DNA of 58,593 bases from Verrucomicrobiales bacterium (GTDB lineage Bacteria > Verrucomicrobiota > Verrucomicrobiia > Limisphaerales > CANJXF01), in assembly GCA_947478865.1 (NCBI GenBank), contig CANJXF010000025.1, forward strand, positions 1-58,593, given 5' to 3'. The translations under genes and the position numbers were made by a program. The notes below the pieces were generated by a model. The model searched no databases and was not told where the DNA came from. It saw only the letters and a program-made list of their open reading frames with translations. Shown in pieces: positions 9,045 to 14,601 of this stretch. Position 1 is the first letter of the stretch. Every line of letters starts with the position of its first letter.

Positions 9045-9722
9045 TTACCAGGCCTCCTTGGCCTCCATCGTGGGAGGCTTCCCTGCCACCTCCTCCCCTT
9101 GGACCGGGTCGCCGTAGATTTTCTCCAGCGCCTGGTCGACCAGAAGGTAGCCTTGCGGCGGAAGCTCAGGTTCCGGCGGGCTGGTTTCCAAACCGGTGGC
9201 AAGCCGGCCGAAGGTAAACCCCAGGCCGGCCAGCCGCGCAATATGGCTCAAGCTCATCCGCGCGTGGGGCTGGCGCTGCGCGAAGAGCGCCAGCGCTTCG
9301 TGGCCCGCATCGATCCAGCGATTCCAATCGTCCAGCTCCCGCTCGATTGCCCGGCAGGTCTGGGGCGATTGCGGGCTGGGCGGGTCCAGGTCGTCGGAGT
9401 CCTTGGCCTCACCGGAGGGCGGGGTGGTGGTGCCGTAGACCCGATCGAGGATCGGCAACCATTTCTGCCTGCGTGCGATTTCTGCCCGGCGCGCGGCGGA
9501 GGCGCGGTCCACGACGGCGAAATCGAACTGGCGCGGGGCGAGCTTGATCAGCCGGCGGTGGGACCGGATGGCATGGGCAAAGGCGGCCAATGCCGTGGCA
9601 AGGTCCTGGAAGCGGCGTCGCCCGGCGCCGACGCGCCGCCGGGTGCCAGGGCGTCTCGGCGAACGAAAGTAACGCCGCGCAAGGCGGCGAACCGGGCTGG
9701 GCCTGATGTTTAATGCAGTCAC
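9045..9722 (-). CDS. Hypothetical GC-rich protein of a two-gene accessory module
   Basis: A 225-residue frame starting with GTG (9720-9722). The N-terminus is very Arg-rich (RRLARRYFRSPRRPGTRRR), the middle is helical and charged (about 45-150), and the C-terminal third contains a hydrophobic SLSHIARLAGLGFTFGRL stretch and an acidic, Pro-rich tail. No domain is recognised. Composition is more GC- and Arg-rich than the neighbouring core genes, suggesting acquisition. It lies downstream, in the same direction, of the HTH gene at 10050-10460, separated by about 330 bp holding an iterated motif. The true start may differ; an overlapping plus-strand frame of similar length is considered a shadow. 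Confidence 0.45.
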   Translation of the reverse strand: MTALNIRPSPVRRLARRYFRSPRRPGTRRRVGAGRRRFQDLATALAAFAHAIRSHRRLIKLAPRQFDFAVVDRASAARRAEIARRQKWLPILDRVYGTTTPPSGEAKDSDDLDPPSPQSPQTCRAIERELDDWNRWIDAGHEALALFAQRQPHARMSLSHIARLAGLGFTFGRLATGLETSPPEPELPPQGYLLVDQALEKIYGDPVQGEEVAGKPPTMEAKEAW

Positions 9723-9837
9723 GTTGCTGGGTGGCGAATCCGGCGCGAGGGCGCGGTCCCCGGATATCGGATCTGAACCTTTACCGATCCTGAGCTGACG
9801 CAGACGGTGAAACAGAGCTGCGAACTGAGGGTTTTAC

Positions 9838-9863
9838 CTCCCCCTCCTTCCCCCGAGGGGGAG
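9838..9863. repeat. GC-rich hairpin between the two module genes
   Basis: CTCCCCCTC (9838-9846) pairs perfectly with GAGGGGGAG (9855-9863) over an 8-nt loop. No T-run follows on either side, so it is better described as an extragenic palindrome than as an intrinsic terminator. Confidence 0.5.
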
Positions 9864-9911
9864 GGAGTCCATCCGCGTCCTTTGCGTATCCATCGGTCTG
9901 CGCCAGCCCTG

Positions 9912-10010
9912 TTTACCGACCTTTACCGGCTACCGGTTTTCTTACCAGGCCGCCATCCTGGTTTGTTGACCGAGTTTTACCGAATTTTATCGATTTTGAC
10001 CGGTTACCGG
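9912..10010. repeat. Iterated TTTACCGG-like motif array
   Basis: Degenerate copies of a TTTACCGRC/TTTTACCGA motif recur at close to 10-bp spacing: 9912-9920, 9922-9930, 9931-9936 and 9942-9949, then 9975-9983, 9985-9993, 9994-10003 and 10004-10010. A further TTTACCGAT lies near 9780. The near-helical phasing resembles an iteron or a multi-site protein-binding array. It lies between the HTH gene and its downstream neighbour. Confidence 0.45.
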
Positions 10011-10049
10011 CTTTTTGCGCGGGCCAGGGCGGCGATGCTCGGAGAGCGA

Positions 10050-10460
10050 TCAAACCTGCCAGTCCATCACCTCGTCCACGTATTCGGCCGCAGGGATGTT
10101 GCGGGTGGCTTCGGTGAAGGGGCGCAGGGTGGTTTCGCGGGCGATTTCGGCGCGAAGGCTTGCCGCCAGGCTGAGCAGCCGGGCCGTGGGCACGGTGTCG
10201 AGCTTGCGTTGTTCCAACTCCTGTTCGATCCGCTCCATCAGGGCGGAGAGATTGCGCATCCGCTCGTGCTGCGGCCTGAAGAATTTCTCAATCAACCCCT
10301 CGGTCTCGGTGGCGCGCAGGTTTTGGATTTCGAACTGGTGCTGGCGTCCCCACTTGATCAGGGTCGGTTTGGAGACGCTGAGTTCGACGGCAATGCGGTT
10401 GAAGCTCCATCCCTGGGAGCGGAGGAATTTGAAACGTTCGATGGTTTCCTGATCGGTCAT
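10050..10460 (-). CDS. Helix-turn-helix DNA-binding protein, phage terminase-small-subunit-like layout
   Basis: A 136-residue protein. The ATG at 10458-10460 is chosen because AAGGA lies 5 nt upstream; a longer frame to 10520 lacks this. Residues about 4-40 form a helix-turn-helix (RFKFLRSQGWSFNRIAVELS then VSKPTLIKWGRQ), followed by a long charged helical region (about 45-110) likely to be a coiled coil with EIQNLRATE, MERIEQELEQR and LAASLRAEIA heptad-like repeats. HTH plus coiled coil is the layout of small terminase subunits and of some transposition or conjugation regulators; no specific family is certain. It is upstream of the hypothetical gene at 9045-9722 and next to the iterated motif array, which it might bind. 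Confidence 0.6.
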   Translation of the reverse strand: MTDQETIERFKFLRSQGWSFNRIAVELSVSKPTLIKWGRQHQFEIQNLRATETEGLIEKFFRPQHERMRNLSALMERIEQELEQRKLDTVPTARLLSLAASLRAEIARETTLRPFTEATRNIPAAEYVDEVMDWQV

Positions 10461-10687
10461 GTGATCCTTTCCGGCTGCACGCGCAACGGCGGCAGCATGA
10501 GTCCGCTGAAAAAAATTCAAGCGAACAGATTAATTAATGGTTACCAGATTTAGCCTGTGACGTTTTGAGGCGTCGCAAGTTTTAAACCCAATCCCACCGG
10601 GAAAGGTCCAAAAGACATTTGGAAGCAGCCGCTCCCCACCGGGGAGTGTTTGCCGGCCAAGGGACATCGCCACCTCTTAAACCCTTC

Positions 10688-10708
10688 GTTAAGCCATACG
10701 GTCTAGGC
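10688..10708 (+). repeat. 21-bp cassette leader repeat, first copy (GTTAAGC...)
   Basis: GTTAAGCCATACGGTCTAGG plus a final C occurs identically at 10688-10708 and 11918-11938, 19 bp and 4 bp before the start codons of the small genes at 10727 and 11942. Its first seven bases fit GTTRRRY, the consensus of the cassette-proximal core site of integron attC sites. Confidence 0.7.
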
Positions 10709-10726
10709 ATAAACCGTTTCAAAATC

Positions 10727-11254
10727 ATGGCCGCTTTGTTTGGCATCCTCTTCATCCTGCTGTTCTTCGCAATTCTGGCGGCACCCGTCATCGCCCCTGT
10801 CGTACTGGCTGCCAAGTCAAAGACGATAGCTTTGTCAATCAAGGTTGGTCTGATCGTCGCTGGAGCGCTGACAGCGCTCTACACGGTGGCGAAATATGGT
10901 CAGGCGCTTGATAGTGATTCTGATTTCAAAGGCTTCCGCGTATTCGCGCTACCTCCCGTGGAGTGGGTATTCGCTGCTTACAGTATCGCAGCCTTGGTCA
11001 GTGCAGGTGCGCTGATTCATCGGGCACGATCCGCTCGTTTGCGCCAGTCAGGAACATTGGTTCCGGTGCTCACGCTCGCTGCCTGTATCACTCTCGGAGT
11101 GATCTTTGGGCGAGCGTTCATGCGTTTGCCATTTGGAGACGATATTCTGAGCAAGAAACAGCTCAGAGCCGAACTAGACGGTCCAGCGAACGGGAGCCAG
11201 CCGTTTCGGTTGCTGGTAAACACGAACGTCGTGGAGGCTGGCTCCCGTCGCTGA
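10727..11254 (+). CDS. Small four-helix membrane protein in a cassette-like unit
   Basis: A 175-residue protein of unknown family. ATG at 10727 is preferred: the frame continues upstream through the 21-bp leader repeat, but those residues are not hydrophobic. Four membrane helices are visible: about 2-28 (ALFGILFILLFFAILAAPVI), 32-56, 75-95 and 106-127, with a polar C-terminal tail of about 45 residues. It is followed after 22 bp by a second small gene in the same unit. Unlike chromosomal neighbours it shows no secretion or enzyme features. Possible roles (for instance partner of the following immunity-like protein) are speculation. Confidence 0.6.
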   Translation: MAALFGILFILLFFAILAAPVIAPVVLAAKSKTIALSIKVGLIVAGALTALYTVAKYGQALDSDSDFKGFRVFALPPVEWVFAAYSIAALVSAGALIHRARSARLRQSGTLVPVLTLAACITLGVIFGRAFMRLPFGDDILSKKQLRAELDGPANGSQPFRLLVNTNVVEAGSRR

Positions 11255-11276
11255 CCTTTGTGTTGGGCCGCTTACC

Positions 11277-11609
11277 ATGTCACAGTCACTCAAGCATTTG
11301 ATTTCCGAGCGAGGCTTCGACAGCTTTCGAGACGGATTGGAGGCGCGATTCAGAGCGCATGGCTTGATTTTTCGCATTCATTACTCCGAAGGCTCTCCGC
11401 TTCCTTCATTGCTTGTTTGCCTTGAAAATGCGGAGCGTGCTGGCGAGGTGTGCGTTTGGGAGAGCGGTCATTGCGACATCACCGCCGGTTCGCTTGATGG
11501 CGAGACGAAAGACCGGCATGTCGTCCTTGAGACAGCCGAAGGTTTTCATGAGCAGCTCGCAGCACTATTTTTATATGTCACCAAGAGAGAGTGGACACAT
11601 GCGGCCTAA
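11277..11609 (+). CDS. Small soluble protein resembling TriTu-type immunity proteins
   Basis: A 110-residue protein without signal peptide or membrane helices. The central VCVWESGHCDITAGSLDGE strand region followed by a HVVLETAEGFHEQLAALF helix resembles from memory the immunity protein TriTu family, whose members share a V-W-E-S-G element before a variable acidic part and a C-terminal helix. That family is associated with polymorphic toxin loci, but no toxin gene is nearby. Its stop codon TAA (11607-11609) lies inside GCCTAAC (11604-11610), the place where integron cassette genes usually end. The family assignment is tentative. Confidence 0.5.
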   Translation: MSQSLKHLISERGFDSFRDGLEARFRAHGLIFRIHYSEGSPLPSLLVCLENAERAGEVCVWESGHCDITAGSLDGETKDRHVVLETAEGFHEQLAALFLYVTKREWTHAA

Positions 11610-11718
11610 CCTCCAAGTCTAGCTTTGACCGACTAAGCGCAGCGAAGGAGCGTCGAAGCGAGCCGTTGTTGAACAAGCCCGGTCGAACTTACCTGAAGTC
11701 TTCTCTGCGGTTTTCTTT
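11604..11718 (+). repeat. 115-bp cassette trailer repeat, first copy, with attC-like 71-bp core
   Basis: This 115-bp segment recurs at 12280-12394 with six mismatches by eye. Both copies open with GCCTAAC (fits RYYYAAC) close to the stop codon of the preceding gene. 71 bp from that start, this copy has GTTGAAC (11668-11674, fits GTTRRRY). Between them AGCTT..CGAC pairs with GTCG AAGCK-type bases with a TGA/TGAC bulge, an arrangement reminiscent of folded attC sites. The remaining sequence to 11941 is noncoding and holds two hairpins, CCCGG/CCGGG (11828-11844) and ATCCGC/GCGGAT (11864-11879). Confidence 0.6.
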
Positions 11719-11917
11719 TCCGGCCTGACCGAGGCGATTGCGTGGCCATCGTTTCCTGGTGGACGTCCAATCCGATCTGATGCACTGTTTTGTTCATGGG
11801 TGTTTGGTTTTACATGGTTAGCAACGGCCCGGATTTTTGCCGGGACTTTAACATTGTGGATAGATCCGCTCCGGCGGATAACCCACGCTCCAAATCAAAC
11901 ACCCTCTTTTTCATTTT

Positions 11918-11938
11918 GTTAAGCCATACGGTCTAGGC
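11918..11938 (+). repeat. 21-bp cassette leader repeat, second copy (GTTAAGC...)
   Basis: Identical to 10688-10708. It lies 3 bp before the ATG of the gene at 11942, so the repeat probably also forms the 5' untranslated leader of that gene. Confidence 0.7.
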
Positions 11939-11941
11939 TGC

Positions 11942-12271
11942 ATGCGTCTTACGTATTACATCACAGCGATAGTGCTTTGGGTGTTGATGATTGTGGGTGT
12001 GCATGCTGCTGCCTCTTCGCACTATAAAGGTCACGAGCAGTTGTCCTTCATTTTTGTTGTGTCAGGACTGATTGCATCGGCGTTTGGATTGCTTTTGGCC
12101 TTTTGCAAGAGCGAGCTAGCCATCGGATTTGGAGCTTTTGCCATTGTTCACGGTTTAGGTCTTCCATTTCTTGAGGGGCCAAACATAAAGTTTCCCGTTG
12201 GTTTGATCATGCCAGCCATTTCGATTGTGGCTGGCGTCAGTGCAATCATTATGAGTAGAAAGAAGAGTTGA
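11942..12271 (+). CDS. Small membrane protein in the second cassette-like unit
   Basis: A 109-residue protein made almost wholly of hydrophobic segments: about 5-25 (ITAIVLWVLMIVGVHAA), 34-56, 59-77 and 84-104, ending in the basic tail SRKKS that would lie in the cytoplasm. No family is recognised. The ORF begins 4 bp after the second 21-bp leader repeat and ends 8 bp before the second trailer repeat, so it fills the whole unit. It is not obviously homologous to the membrane protein in the first unit. Confidence 0.6.
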   Translation: MRLTYYITAIVLWVLMIVGVHAAASSHYKGHEQLSFIFVVSGLIASAFGLLLAFCKSELAIGFGAFAIVHGLGLPFLEGPNIKFPVGLIMPAISIVAGVSAIIMSRKKS

Positions 12272-12279
12272 TTTATGCA

Positions 12280-12394
12280 GCCTAACCTCCAAGGCCAGCT
12301 TTGACCGACTGAGCGCAGCGAAGGAGCGTCGAAGCTAGCCGTTTTTGAACAAGCCCGGTCGAACTTACCTGAAGTCTTCTATGCGGTTTTCTTT
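12280..12394 (+). repeat. 115-bp cassette trailer repeat, second copy
   Basis: Second copy of 11604-11718. The opening GCCTAAC is intact (12280-12286), while the position of GTTGAAC in copy 1 reads TTTGAAC here (12344-12350). The 71-bp spacing is conserved exactly. Confidence 0.6.
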
Positions 12395-12627
12395 GGCCAC
12401 TGATCATTCGTGCCAGGTCCGTGGACAGCCATTTTCCCTCGGCCTGCCTCCCGCTTCAGCCGCCTTCTGAAGGTCAACCCGCGTCCGGTGCGGGCGGGAA
12501 GGCGGTCTCCGCCGCCCTGGGCGGGCCTCGGCGCTGAGGCCTGGGCAGAGCCCACCCTGGAACGCCGTCTCACTTTTTACGACGGCATCCGGCGGGCTGA
12601 AGGGGGTGCGGTGGTGTGCATCGGTCT

Positions 12628-12840
12628 TCACGGCGGACGGCAAGGCTGGCGCGGCAACACGCCGAGGCGCTGCATCGGTTTCCCACAGCACGGACAAGCC
12701 TTGGCCCATGGTGCGCGCTGCGGCGGCCGCGCACCCGCGCTCCAGTCGAGCAGGGCCAGGATGCGTTCCCACCGGGTCCTGCGGATCAGTGCATCCTCGA
12801 TCCAGCGCTGGAACATTTCAGAATCCTCAAACCTTCCATC
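12628..12840 (-). pseudogene. Probable remnant of an IS91-family transposase C-terminus
   Basis: On the minus strand a frame ending at 12628 reads RRTRWERILALLDW, then an Ala/Pro linker, then CPCCGKPMQRLGVLPRQP. A W-E-R-I-x-A-L-L-D-W helix followed by a C-P-x-C-G-K-x-M zinc ribbon at the extreme end is, from memory, how verrucomicrobial IS91-like (HUH) transposases finish. The upstream catalytic part (HUH and Tyr motifs) is absent and the frame dissolves into noncoding sequence above about 12840, so this is a truncated relic. Confidence 0.4.
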
Positions 12841-12873
12841 CTTTTTTCCGGGCGGCGGGACGCGCGCCCTCCA

Positions 12874-12895
12874 CGGCAGGCGCGGACGCCTGCCG
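12874..12895. repeat. REP-like perfect hairpin
   Basis: CGGCAGGCG pairs with CGCCTGCCG over a 4-nt CGGA loop. It belongs to the same GGCAGG/CCTGCC-type palindrome class as 43931-43951 and 48458-48478 in this window. Confidence 0.5.
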
Positions 12896-13110
12896 CCACA
12901 CCGACGGTTTCCAGTTCTTATTTCAAAATTCGGGTTCAAACCTTCCGCGCAGGGCATGATTGCTTGAAGATCATTTGGAACGCGGAATTTGCCCGCCCTA
13001 TCGAGGGGCGCGAACTGCCACCGCCAAAAACTCTTGATCGGGATCACCGGCATATTTTTAAAGACCTTAATGTTTGCTTAAGGTTGGGTCCAGTAAGGTG
13101 CGGCCAGTAA

Positions 13111-14601
13111 ATGAACCCTTTGTGTATGAATAATAAAATCCGGTTGATCCTGGTCCTCATTTTAGGCGCGGCCAATTTGGTGGTGGTGAGTCGCGCGGTG
13201 GCCGATCCGCGAATTGATTCGTGGTTCACGGAGAAGTCCGGCAAATACGCCCGCCTTTACGAAACCGTGGCGAGCGAAACGGCGGGGAACTCGGTCACCA
13301 CCTGGAGCCGGGGGCAGGGCGTGCAGGCGTCGCCGGTTTACGCGGGGGTGCGCGAAGTGTCCTACTCGGCGAACTGGATTTACATTCGCAGCAGCGGTTT
13401 GCCGAGCTACACGATGGGCCCCTGGTATTTGAACACGAACAAGACCACCCCTTTCCCGAGCTATCCGGCCAACACAAAAGTGATTTATCGCTTTCCGCGG
13501 AATCCCACCGCTCCAGTGAGCAAAACGTTAACCGGCCTTGGCGCGATTGGCTATTTCGTGAACGGCGTCGCGCTCTTCGATAATCGCGACGCGTTTTATT
13601 GGAGCGGCACCGGCGAGGTGCAGGGAAGCGGCTTGTGGAATCGCGATGCCTACGTGAATGAGAGCGTGACCTTCGACGCCGCGCTCGCCCATCAAGCCGG
13701 AGCGAACCATCATTATCACGCGAACCCGATCGCGCTGCGTTACCAACTGGGCGACCACGTTGATTTCAATTCCACCAGCAATCGATACGCGGAGAGCGCC
13801 AGCGCGCCGGCTCAGCATTCGCCGATTCTCGCCTGGGTGCGCGACGGGTATCCGATCTACGGCCCGTACGGTTATGCGGATCCCACGAACGCCGCGAGCG
13901 GCATCAAGCGGATGGTGTCGGGTTTCATTCCCCGCGACGGCAGCTACGGCAGTTCCAATCTCACGGTCACCGGCCGCACCACGCTACCGGCCTGGGCGGC
14001 GCGGGCGAACAACCGTTCCGCCACGCTGGCCACCAACGAATATGGCCCGAACGTGGTTCCGGGCGGCCCCAATTCCGCGACGAATTATTACGCGATCGGG
14101 CATTATATCGAAGACAACGATTACCTCGGAGACCTGGGCGTCGCGAAGGGCACGAACACCTATGACCTCGACGAATACAACGGCCGCTTCTGCGTGACGC
14201 CGGAATTTCCTGAGGGCACTTATGCTTACTTCGTCACGATAACCACGAACGCCGCGCCAGCTTATCCCTACAATCTCGGACGCAGCTATTACGGCAATCC
14301 CACCGGGACGAACCTCACCTCGATTGCTGAGGTGGTCACAACGAACTTTGTCGGCGGCGCGAACGCCGAGCTGCGCGTCGCCCCACCGGTTGTGAGCAAC
14401 AACGTCGTCACGCTGGCCTGGAGCGCGACGGAAGGAGGGACGTATCAAGTCACTTCGAGCGGCGATTTGAATGCGTGGACGACCAACGCGACCGGCGTCA
14501 CGGCAACCTTCAATCGCGGGACCAACACGACCAGCGCCTCCATCACCAACCGTTTCTTCCGGGTCACCCGAACTTCGCTTGCGACATACGACACCAATTG
14601 A
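13111..14601 (+). CDS. Secreted YHYH-domain protein
   Basis: A 496-residue exported protein. A signal peptide ends near residue 31 (SRAVA); starts at 13111 and 13126 are both possible, with AAGGTG some 10 nt before the first. The body contains the YHYH domain: a GIGYFVNGV-like strand with the bound form GAIGYFVNGVALFDN (about 144-158), the motif HHYH at 200-203 within GANHHYHANP, and the segment DGYPIYGPYGY (about 245-256). A C-terminal beta domain (about 420-490) follows. The His cluster suggests metal binding, but the biochemical role of YHYH proteins is not established. It is the first gene of a four-gene exported operon and lies 13 bp upstream of the MbnP-MbnH fusion gene, suggesting a joint role in copper or redox chemistry outside the cytoplasm. 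Confidence 0.85.
   Translation: MNPLCMNNKIRLILVLILGAANLVVVSRAVADPRIDSWFTEKSGKYARLYETVASETAGNSVTTWSRGQGVQASPVYAGVREVSYSANWIYIRSSGLPSYTMGPWYLNTNKTTPFPSYPANTKVIYRFPRNPTAPVSKTLTGLGAIGYFVNGVALFDNRDAFYWSGTGEVQGSGLWNRDAYVNESVTFDAALAHQAGANHHYHANPIALRYQLGDHVDFNSTSNRYAESASAPAQHSPILAWVRDGYPIYGPYGYADPTNAASGIKRMVSGFIPRDGSYGSSNLTVTGRTTLPAWAARANNRSATLATNEYGPNVVPGGPNSATNYYAIGHYIEDNDYLGDLGVAKGTNTYDLDEYNGRFCVTPEFPEGTYAYFVTITTNAAPAYPYNLGRSYYGNPTGTNLTSIAEVVTTNFVGGANAELRVAPPVVSNNVVTLAWSATEGGTYQVTSSGDLNAWTTNATGVTATFNRGTNTTSASITNRFFRVTRTSLATYDTN

What the first reader, a model, noticed from the sequence alone, without database searches (positions are those of the whole stretch)
10688..12394. Two integron cassette-like units with identical leaders and near-identical trailers
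Unit A (10688-11718) and unit B (11918-12394) share a perfect 21-bp leader starting GTTAAGC (fits GTTRRRY) just before small unrelated genes, and a 115-bp trailer starting GCCTAAC (fits RYYYAAC) at or next to the last stop. A GTTGAAC 71 bp into the first trailer would make an attC-sized site. Only the flanks are alike, not the cargo, which is the hallmark of gene cassettes. About 244 bp of extra noncoding DNA between the trailer core and the next leader is not standard, so this may be a variant mobile unit.
Basis: seen in the sequence. Interest (0 to 1): 0.6.

Follow-up and report, generated by a model that had tools for sequence, protein, structure and literature searches.

The report
Integron cassettes scarred by mobile elements
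The two repeats flank real integron gene cassettes, small swappable genes in a Verrucomicrobiota bacterium, whose recombination sites have been split by remains of two transposable elements; the same cassettes also end in a tiny start-codon-led reading frame that runs into the recombination site and recurs in unrelated integrons.

Summary
The 21-bp leader has 23 near-identical copies and the trailer about 30 matches in the same genome, arranged as short dispersed arrays around 23 mutually unrelated small genes.

The trailer core (11604-11674, 12280-12350) is the attC: R' box GCCTAAC, an arm that partly covaries between families, then GTTGAAC. The leader is not R''. It is the left tip of an IS1111-type (IS110 superfamily) insertion sequence, inserted inside R'' between GTT and AGGC; only its last four bases (AGGC) belong to the cassette. 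The "extra 244 bp" is the start of an IS91-transposase cassette fused to the IS1111-type transposase N-terminus and left end.

The genome holds attI-cassette junctions and intI fragments but no intact intI. Relatives carry intact IntI, canonical attC arrays, and full IS1111-type elements at the same R'' position. Closest known kinds: CALIN arrays and the IS1111-attC group.

A by-product may matter more. Almost every cassette has an ATG 1-12 codons before R', in frame with attC: 19/21 here, 59/77 in other families, against 0-10% in the other frames. attC therefore appears to be translated.

The parts
10673..10704 (-). Truncated left end of an IS1111-type element (about 15 bp plus the tip GTTAAGCCATACGGTCT); left border of the array
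   Evidence: Same tip as 23 copies; only about 15 bp of the upstream block shared here
10705..10708 (+). AGGC: rest of the R'' box (G|TTAGGC) of cassette A
   Evidence: attI and attC of the order end GTTAGGC; IS left ends precede AGGC/AGCC
10727..11254 (+). Cassette A, ORF 1 (175 aa, predicted membrane protein, no Pfam family)
11277..11609 (+). Cassette A, ORF 2 (110 aa, weak similarity to immunity protein TriTu PF24689, below cut-off); its stop is the TAA in R'
11599..11622 (+). Mini-ORF MRPNLQV* that starts before R' and ends in the attC arm
   Evidence: 19 of 21 trailers have an ATG in this frame, none in the others
11604..11674 (+). attC of cassette A (T1): R' GCCTAAC 11604-11610, stem arms, ends GTTGAAC
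11675..11739 (+). T2: start of an IS91-transposase cassette (oriIS-side end), truncated
   Evidence: Same sequence lies directly before IS91 genes in G018 (L133) and before IS91 remnants in C25 and C82
11740..11797 (-). First codons (MNKTVHQIGLDVHQET...) of an IS110/IS1111-type transposase, truncated
   Evidence: Longer copy at C90:12396-12734 passes the PF01548 cut-off
11798..11934 (-). IS1111-type left end: noncoding region, subterminal repeat AAGCCAT 11921-11927, 7-bp extension ACGGTCT 11928-11934
   Evidence: 7/3-bp extensions as in PMC11187229
11935..11938 (+). AGGC: rest of the R'' box of cassette B
11942..12271 (+). Cassette B gene (109 aa, predicted membrane protein, no family above cut-off)
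12275..12304 (+). Mini-ORF MQPNLQGQL* running into attC
12280..12350 (+). attC of cassette B (T1 copy 2)
12351..12394 (+). T2 copy 2, leading into the IS91 remnant
12631..12783 (-). C-terminal remnant of an IS91-family transposase (residues 300-350); right border of the array
   Evidence: E 3.5e-12, 55% identity

Best explanation
The window holds a two-cassette fragment of a degraded, dispersed integron array (CALIN-like). Each cassette is one or two small genes plus a 71-nt attC that starts at GCCTAAC. The attC joining one cassette to the next has been split inside R'' by an IS1111-type element that targets attC. What is left of that element is its left end (the 'leader' GTTAAGCCATACGGTCT) and the first codons of its transposase, fused by a deletion to the start (T2) of an IS91-transposase cassette. 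Most likely history, inferred: cassettes were captured by IntI at attI (G|TTAGGC); IS1111-type elements inserted at GTT|AGGC; a deletion fused T2 to the IS remnant; the fused block then stayed as the 5' part of cassettes that recombine, or once recombined, at the G|TTGAAC end of T1 and spread to about 20 places. Shown: anatomy, copy number, insertion point, relatives. Inferred: the recombination steps, the spreading route, and any present activity.
For: Unit order T1-T2-IS remnant-left end-leader-gene repeated over many contigs. Cargo: 23 mutually unrelated genes starting 4-37 nt after the head. attI-type junctions CTTCAATG-TTAGGC-gene beside IntI N-terminal fragments at C102, C93, C73, and a short one at C3; IntI C-terminal fragment at C3. 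Relatives: IntI in 27 of 58 genomes, canonical attC arrays beside intI, canonical attC in 51 of 146 genomes. IS reading: PF01548 hit, full element in L130 inserted in an attC as GTT|GATATGGC...GGTCT|AGCC with 7/3-bp extensions, 14 left ends in 11 other genomes followed by AGGC/AGCC/AGAC and a gene start, and right ends after attC-like arms. T2 next to IS91 genes. T1 pairing 91% of cells with 3 doubly changed pairs.
Against: Folding energy of T1 as single-stranded DNA is ordinary. R' GCCTAAC and GTTGAAC of T1 are poorly complementary, and 4-5 of 21 copies break the GTT. No intact intI was found in the genome. No T1 followed directly by GTTAGGC was seen in this genome. It is not explained how one scar with one breakpoint came to precede about 20 unrelated genes.
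Confidence: 0.8

Rival explanations
1. The T2-IS remnant-left end block is a non-autonomous IS1111-type element (MITE-like) that was inserted independently into each attC R'' by a transposase supplied in trans.
For: Both junctions (GTT|GAAC... and ...GGTCT|AGGC) fall exactly where full elements split attC; explains one block before many genes.
Against: T2 lacks the IS1111 right end (no AAGCCAT-ATC repeat) and is instead the IS91-cassette start. The intI-headed units also carry T2. No empty T1-GTTAGGC site in the genome.
Confidence: 0.15
2. Units bounded by T2 spread by IS91-type rolling-circle transposition into GAAC at the end of T1, with T2 acting as origin.
For: T2 is the IS91 oriIS-side end and always abuts GAAC or a near match; IS91 elements are known from general knowledge to prefer GAAC/CAAG-type targets; tandem units run from one T2 to the next.
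Against: In L133 the IS91 unit is bounded like a cassette, with complementary GTTGAAC and GTTCAAC boxes and its own attC, which IntI explains without IS91 activity. Only remnants of IS91 are in this genome.
Confidence: 0.15
3. A simple dispersed repeat with no integron connection.
For: A few leader copies (C6 before a xerC-like gene, C14) precede ordinary chromosomal genes with no T1. Weak folding energy.
Against: attI-cassette junctions and intI fragments inside the same arrays, compact unrelated cargo between fixed borders, and the same arrangement in integron-bearing relatives.
Confidence: 0.04

Closest known systems
CALIN (clusters of attC sites lacking an integron integrase) and sedentary chromosomal integrons
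   Same: Short arrays of unrelated small genes each followed by a near-identical attC, no intact integrase nearby
   Different: Scattered over about 19 contigs in groups of one to four; the R'' side of most attCs is replaced by IS scar
IS1111-attC group (ISKpn4, ISPst6 and relatives; Tetu and Holmes 2008, Post and Hall 2009, PMC11187229)
   Same: DEDD transposase, subterminal repeats with 7-bp and 3-bp extensions, insertion at one end of attC, fixed orientation
   Different: Found in Verrucomicrobiota; in this genome only left ends with truncated transposases remain
IS91/ISCR family next to integrons
   Same: Y2 transposase with IS91 zinc domain beside cassettes
   Different: Reversed, paired with a tyrosine recombinase, and bounded like a cassette with its own attC in relatives; only a C-terminal remnant in the window
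Short ORFs in attC or attI (ORF-11; short attC ORF of Jacquier et al. 2009, reviewed in PMC8876359)
   Same: A start codon near the end of the cassette gene leads a short ORF into attC
   Different: Reviewed as an occurrence that may relieve the hairpin barrier; here it is near-universal and frame-specific over unrelated attC families

Membership tests
Integron gene cassettes | Unrelated small genes between near-identical borders, same orientation | tested here: met
   23 cargo ORFs with no pair below E 0.09, starts 4-37 nt after the head
Integron gene cassettes | attC with R' RYYYAAC right after the gene and paired arms | tested here: met
   R' GCCTAAC or close variant in nearly all 21 T1 copies; 91% of cells paired, 3 doubly changed pairs; single-strand folding energy ordinary
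Integron gene cassettes | R'' GTTRRRY complementary to R' at the next border | tested here: not met
   Ends GTTGAAC, poorly complementary and broken in some copies; the GTTAGGC R'' is split by the IS tip. Complementary GTTAGGC is present at the attI junctions
Integron gene cassettes | IntI in the genome | tested here: inconclusive
   Only IntI N- and C-terminal fragments in the assembly; intact IntI in 27 of 58 relatives tested
Integron gene cassettes | Excision and integration by IntI | not testable with these tools
   Needs an in vivo recombination assay
IS1111 family (attC-targeting group) | DEDD transposase plus Transposase_20 domain | tested here: met
   L130 protein: PF01548 and PF02371; own copies truncated, one passes PF01548
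IS1111 family (attC-targeting group) | Subterminal repeats with 7-bp left and 3-bp right extensions | tested here: met
   L130: AGACCCT-ATGGCTT and AAGCCAT-ATC; own left end has the repeat and 7-bp extension, right end absent; repeats of 7-8 bp are shorter than the usual 11-13
IS1111 family (attC-targeting group) | Insertion at one end of attC | tested here: met
   GTT|IS|AGGC in relatives and here
IS1111 family (attC-targeting group) | Guide RNA (seekRNA) from the noncoding region | not tested
   About 466 nt of noncoding DNA follow the transposase gene in L130; no RNA tested
IS91 family | Y2 transposase with zinc domain | tested here: met
   Relative L133: PF04986 and PF14319; window holds only residues 300-350

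The most novel reading that the evidence does not exclude
Integron cassettes are built so that ribosomes enter attC: a start codon 1-12 codons before R', usually overlapping or close to the gene's stop, opens a short ORF in the one frame that reads through R', and in the commonest attC type of this order through the whole site to the TAG inside R'' (GT-TAG-GC). attC would then be a dual element, both a single-strand recombination site and a translated, frame-constrained segment that keeps polycistronic cassette mRNA readable. Seen in three attC sequence families of this order and in several class 1 cassettes.
Probability: 0.6. Interest if true: 0.7.

Novelty: new variant of a known kind. Interest (0 to 1): 0.5.

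Why it matters
It shows attC-targeting IS1111-type elements, known from Proteobacteria, in an order of Verrucomicrobiota that is rich in integrons, with their scars persisting in cassettes at about 20 places in one genome. It also warns that cassette borders read from repeats alone can be IS tips. The attC reading-frame rule, if it holds widely, would turn an idea from a few class 1 cassettes (ribosomes relieve the attC hairpin) into a general design rule that can be tested by genome surveys and ribosome profiling.

Tried and rejected
Leader as R'': rejected, since it is homologous to IS left ends, and attI/attC in the order use GTTAGGC. T2 as the IS1111 right end: rejected, no AAGCCAT-ATC repeat. 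One 320-bp attC from GCCTAAC to GTTAAGC: rejected, the arms next to the boxes do not pair and the IS reading explains the middle. Rfam scan of 9500-13500: nothing above gathering score. The IntI family model alone is unspecific at a loose cut-off (rings in all 14 control genomes), so the IntI fragments were called from their own sequence and score. The Xer-like genes at C6 and C69 were set aside as housekeeping recombinases. attC length modulo 3 as a test of translation: uninformative, because 67 of 77 sites share one length. Structure prediction was not used because nothing depended on a fold.

Full report
OBSERVATION. The two leaders are identical and the trailers 92% identical over 131 nt. 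In the host genome (4.4 Mb, 114 contigs; window = contig C25) the leader has 23 copies with at most 2 mismatches and no control hit; the trailer query has 30 matches. They form groups of one to four units on about 19 contigs, many ending at contig ends, as repeats do in assemblies.

UNIT STRUCTURE. The repeated order is T1 (71 nt, starts GCCTAAC) - T2 (65 nt) - a short coding remnant on the minus strand - a left-end region of about 120-137 nt in two sequence variants - leader - gene - T1. Genes start 4-37 nt after the head, are 78-377 aa long, and no two of 23 are related by blastp below E 0.09; few have Pfam matches.

THE LEADER IS AN IS TIP. The minus-strand remnant is the N-terminus of an IS110/IS1111-type transposase; a longer copy at C90:12396-12734 passes the PF01548 cut-off. 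Relatives occur in other families; L130 carries a 413-aa transposase with PF01548 and PF02371. There the element lies inside an attC...GAGCTTGGTC-GTT|GATATGGCTTT at its right end and AAGCCATAGGGTCT|AGCC at its left end. Read in transposase sense the ends are AGACCCT-ATGGCTT and AAGCCAT-ATC, which is the 7-bp and 3-bp extension pattern stated for IS1111-family elements, some of which (ISKpn4, ISPst6) target one end of attC (PMC11187229). A search of 146 genomes found 16 right-end and 14 left-end sites outside this genome; at least half of the right ends follow attC-like 3' arms, and all the left ends precede AG plus, mostly, GC/CC/AC and a gene start. So the leader is the left tip, and only the AGGC at its 3' end belongs to the cassette.

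ATTC AND ATTI. In this order attI and attC mostly use GTTAGGC, and canonical attCs (GCCTAAC...GTTAGGC, 72-111 nt) lie beside intact intI. IntI is present in 27 of 58 sampled genomes, and one tested is 51.6% identical to IntI1. The host genome has three contigs with CTTCAATGTTAGGC-gene junctions next to IntI N-terminal fragments (C102, C93, C73), a fourth, shorter one at C3, and an IntI C-terminal fragment at the end of C3; no intact intI was seen. T1 has R' GCCTAAC and a stem that pairs in 91% of cells with three doubly changed pairs over four families. Its single-strand folding energy is ordinary, so folding alone would not identify it.

T2 AND IS91. T1-T2 lies directly before an IS91-family transposase followed by a tyrosine recombinase, both reversed, in another family (L133). 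That unit starts at GTTGAAC and ends at GTTCAAC followed by a canonical attC, so it looks like a reversed cassette with complementary R'' and R'. L136 shows the same arrangement, with an IS1111-type right end at the GTT of its attC. In the window and in C82, T2 leads into an IS91 C-terminal remnant (12631-12783). The T2/IS1111 fusion has one shared breakpoint in all copies.

MECHANISM. Best supported: cassettes captured by IntI; attC-targeting IS1111-type elements inserted at GTT|AGGC; a deletion fused the IS91-cassette start to the IS left end; cassettes carrying this scar as their 5' part then spread, by IntI at the G|TTGAAC end of T1, by IS91-type transposition, or by homologous recombination between scars. 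The anatomy and insertion point are shown. The spreading route and present activity are inferred, and how one scar came to precede about 20 genes remains open.

ATTC READING FRAME. In 19 of 21 own trailers an ATG lies 1-12 codons before R' in the frame CCT-AAC (P-N-L-Q), and in none in the other two frames; composition shuffles give 3.1 on average and 9 at most. In other families with unrelated attC sequence the counts were 11 of 15 versus 0 and 1, and in 77 canonical attCs (overlapping that set) 59 versus 8 and 7 (shuffle mean 11, maximum 22); in 59 of 77 the ORF stops at the TAG inside R''. The start overlaps or lies close to the gene's stop, most often as ATGA (14 of 66). Class 1 cassettes aadB, aadA2 and aac(6')-Ib show the same (VIM-2 by eye in the same output). 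A role for a short attC ORF in termination-reinitiation is already in the literature (PMC8876359 section 3.2, citing Jacquier 2009); I found no statement of a general frame rule in the papers searched, which is a limited library.

VERDICT. The unusual part is scarring by a known kind of attC-targeting element in a lineage where I know of no report of it, plus a translation feature worth a survey.

Noticed in passing
window 11599-11622 and 12275-12304; attCs in L095-L197: Start codon 1-12 codons upstream of attC, in frame with the attC reading frame, in nearly all cassettes of several unrelated attC families and in some class 1 cassettes.
   Followed up: partly
L133 (G018 C115) and L136 (G024 C35): An IS91 transposase plus tyrosine recombinase, reversed, bounded by complementary GTTGAAC and GTTCAAC boxes and a canonical attC, so it looks like an integron cassette.
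   Followed up: partly
C102:195-329, C93:12386-12541, C73:19924-20052, C3:72247-72382: IntI N-terminal fragments, three of them cut at the same point, with attI, dispersed as heads of small arrays, as if a truncated intI-attI piece had itself spread.
   Followed up: partly
window 11801-11917 versus C90:12767-12887: Two different left-end sequences (X and Y) share the same T2-transposase fusion and the same tip. Variant X folds better than shuffles as RNA on the minus strand (z -2.2), so it may hold a former guide RNA.
   Followed up: no
window 9794-9911; C50:14073-14275; C3:71477-71678; C93:12072-12284: Another dispersed repeat (B, starting CCCAGGGCTGACGCATACGG) sits between the T1 end and a duplicated piece of T1 in several arrays; a diverged copy lies in the window upstream of the array.
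   Followed up: no
C6:74627-74703: A left-end fragment with leader lies about 50 bp upstream of a xerC-like gene, with no cassette.
   Followed up: no
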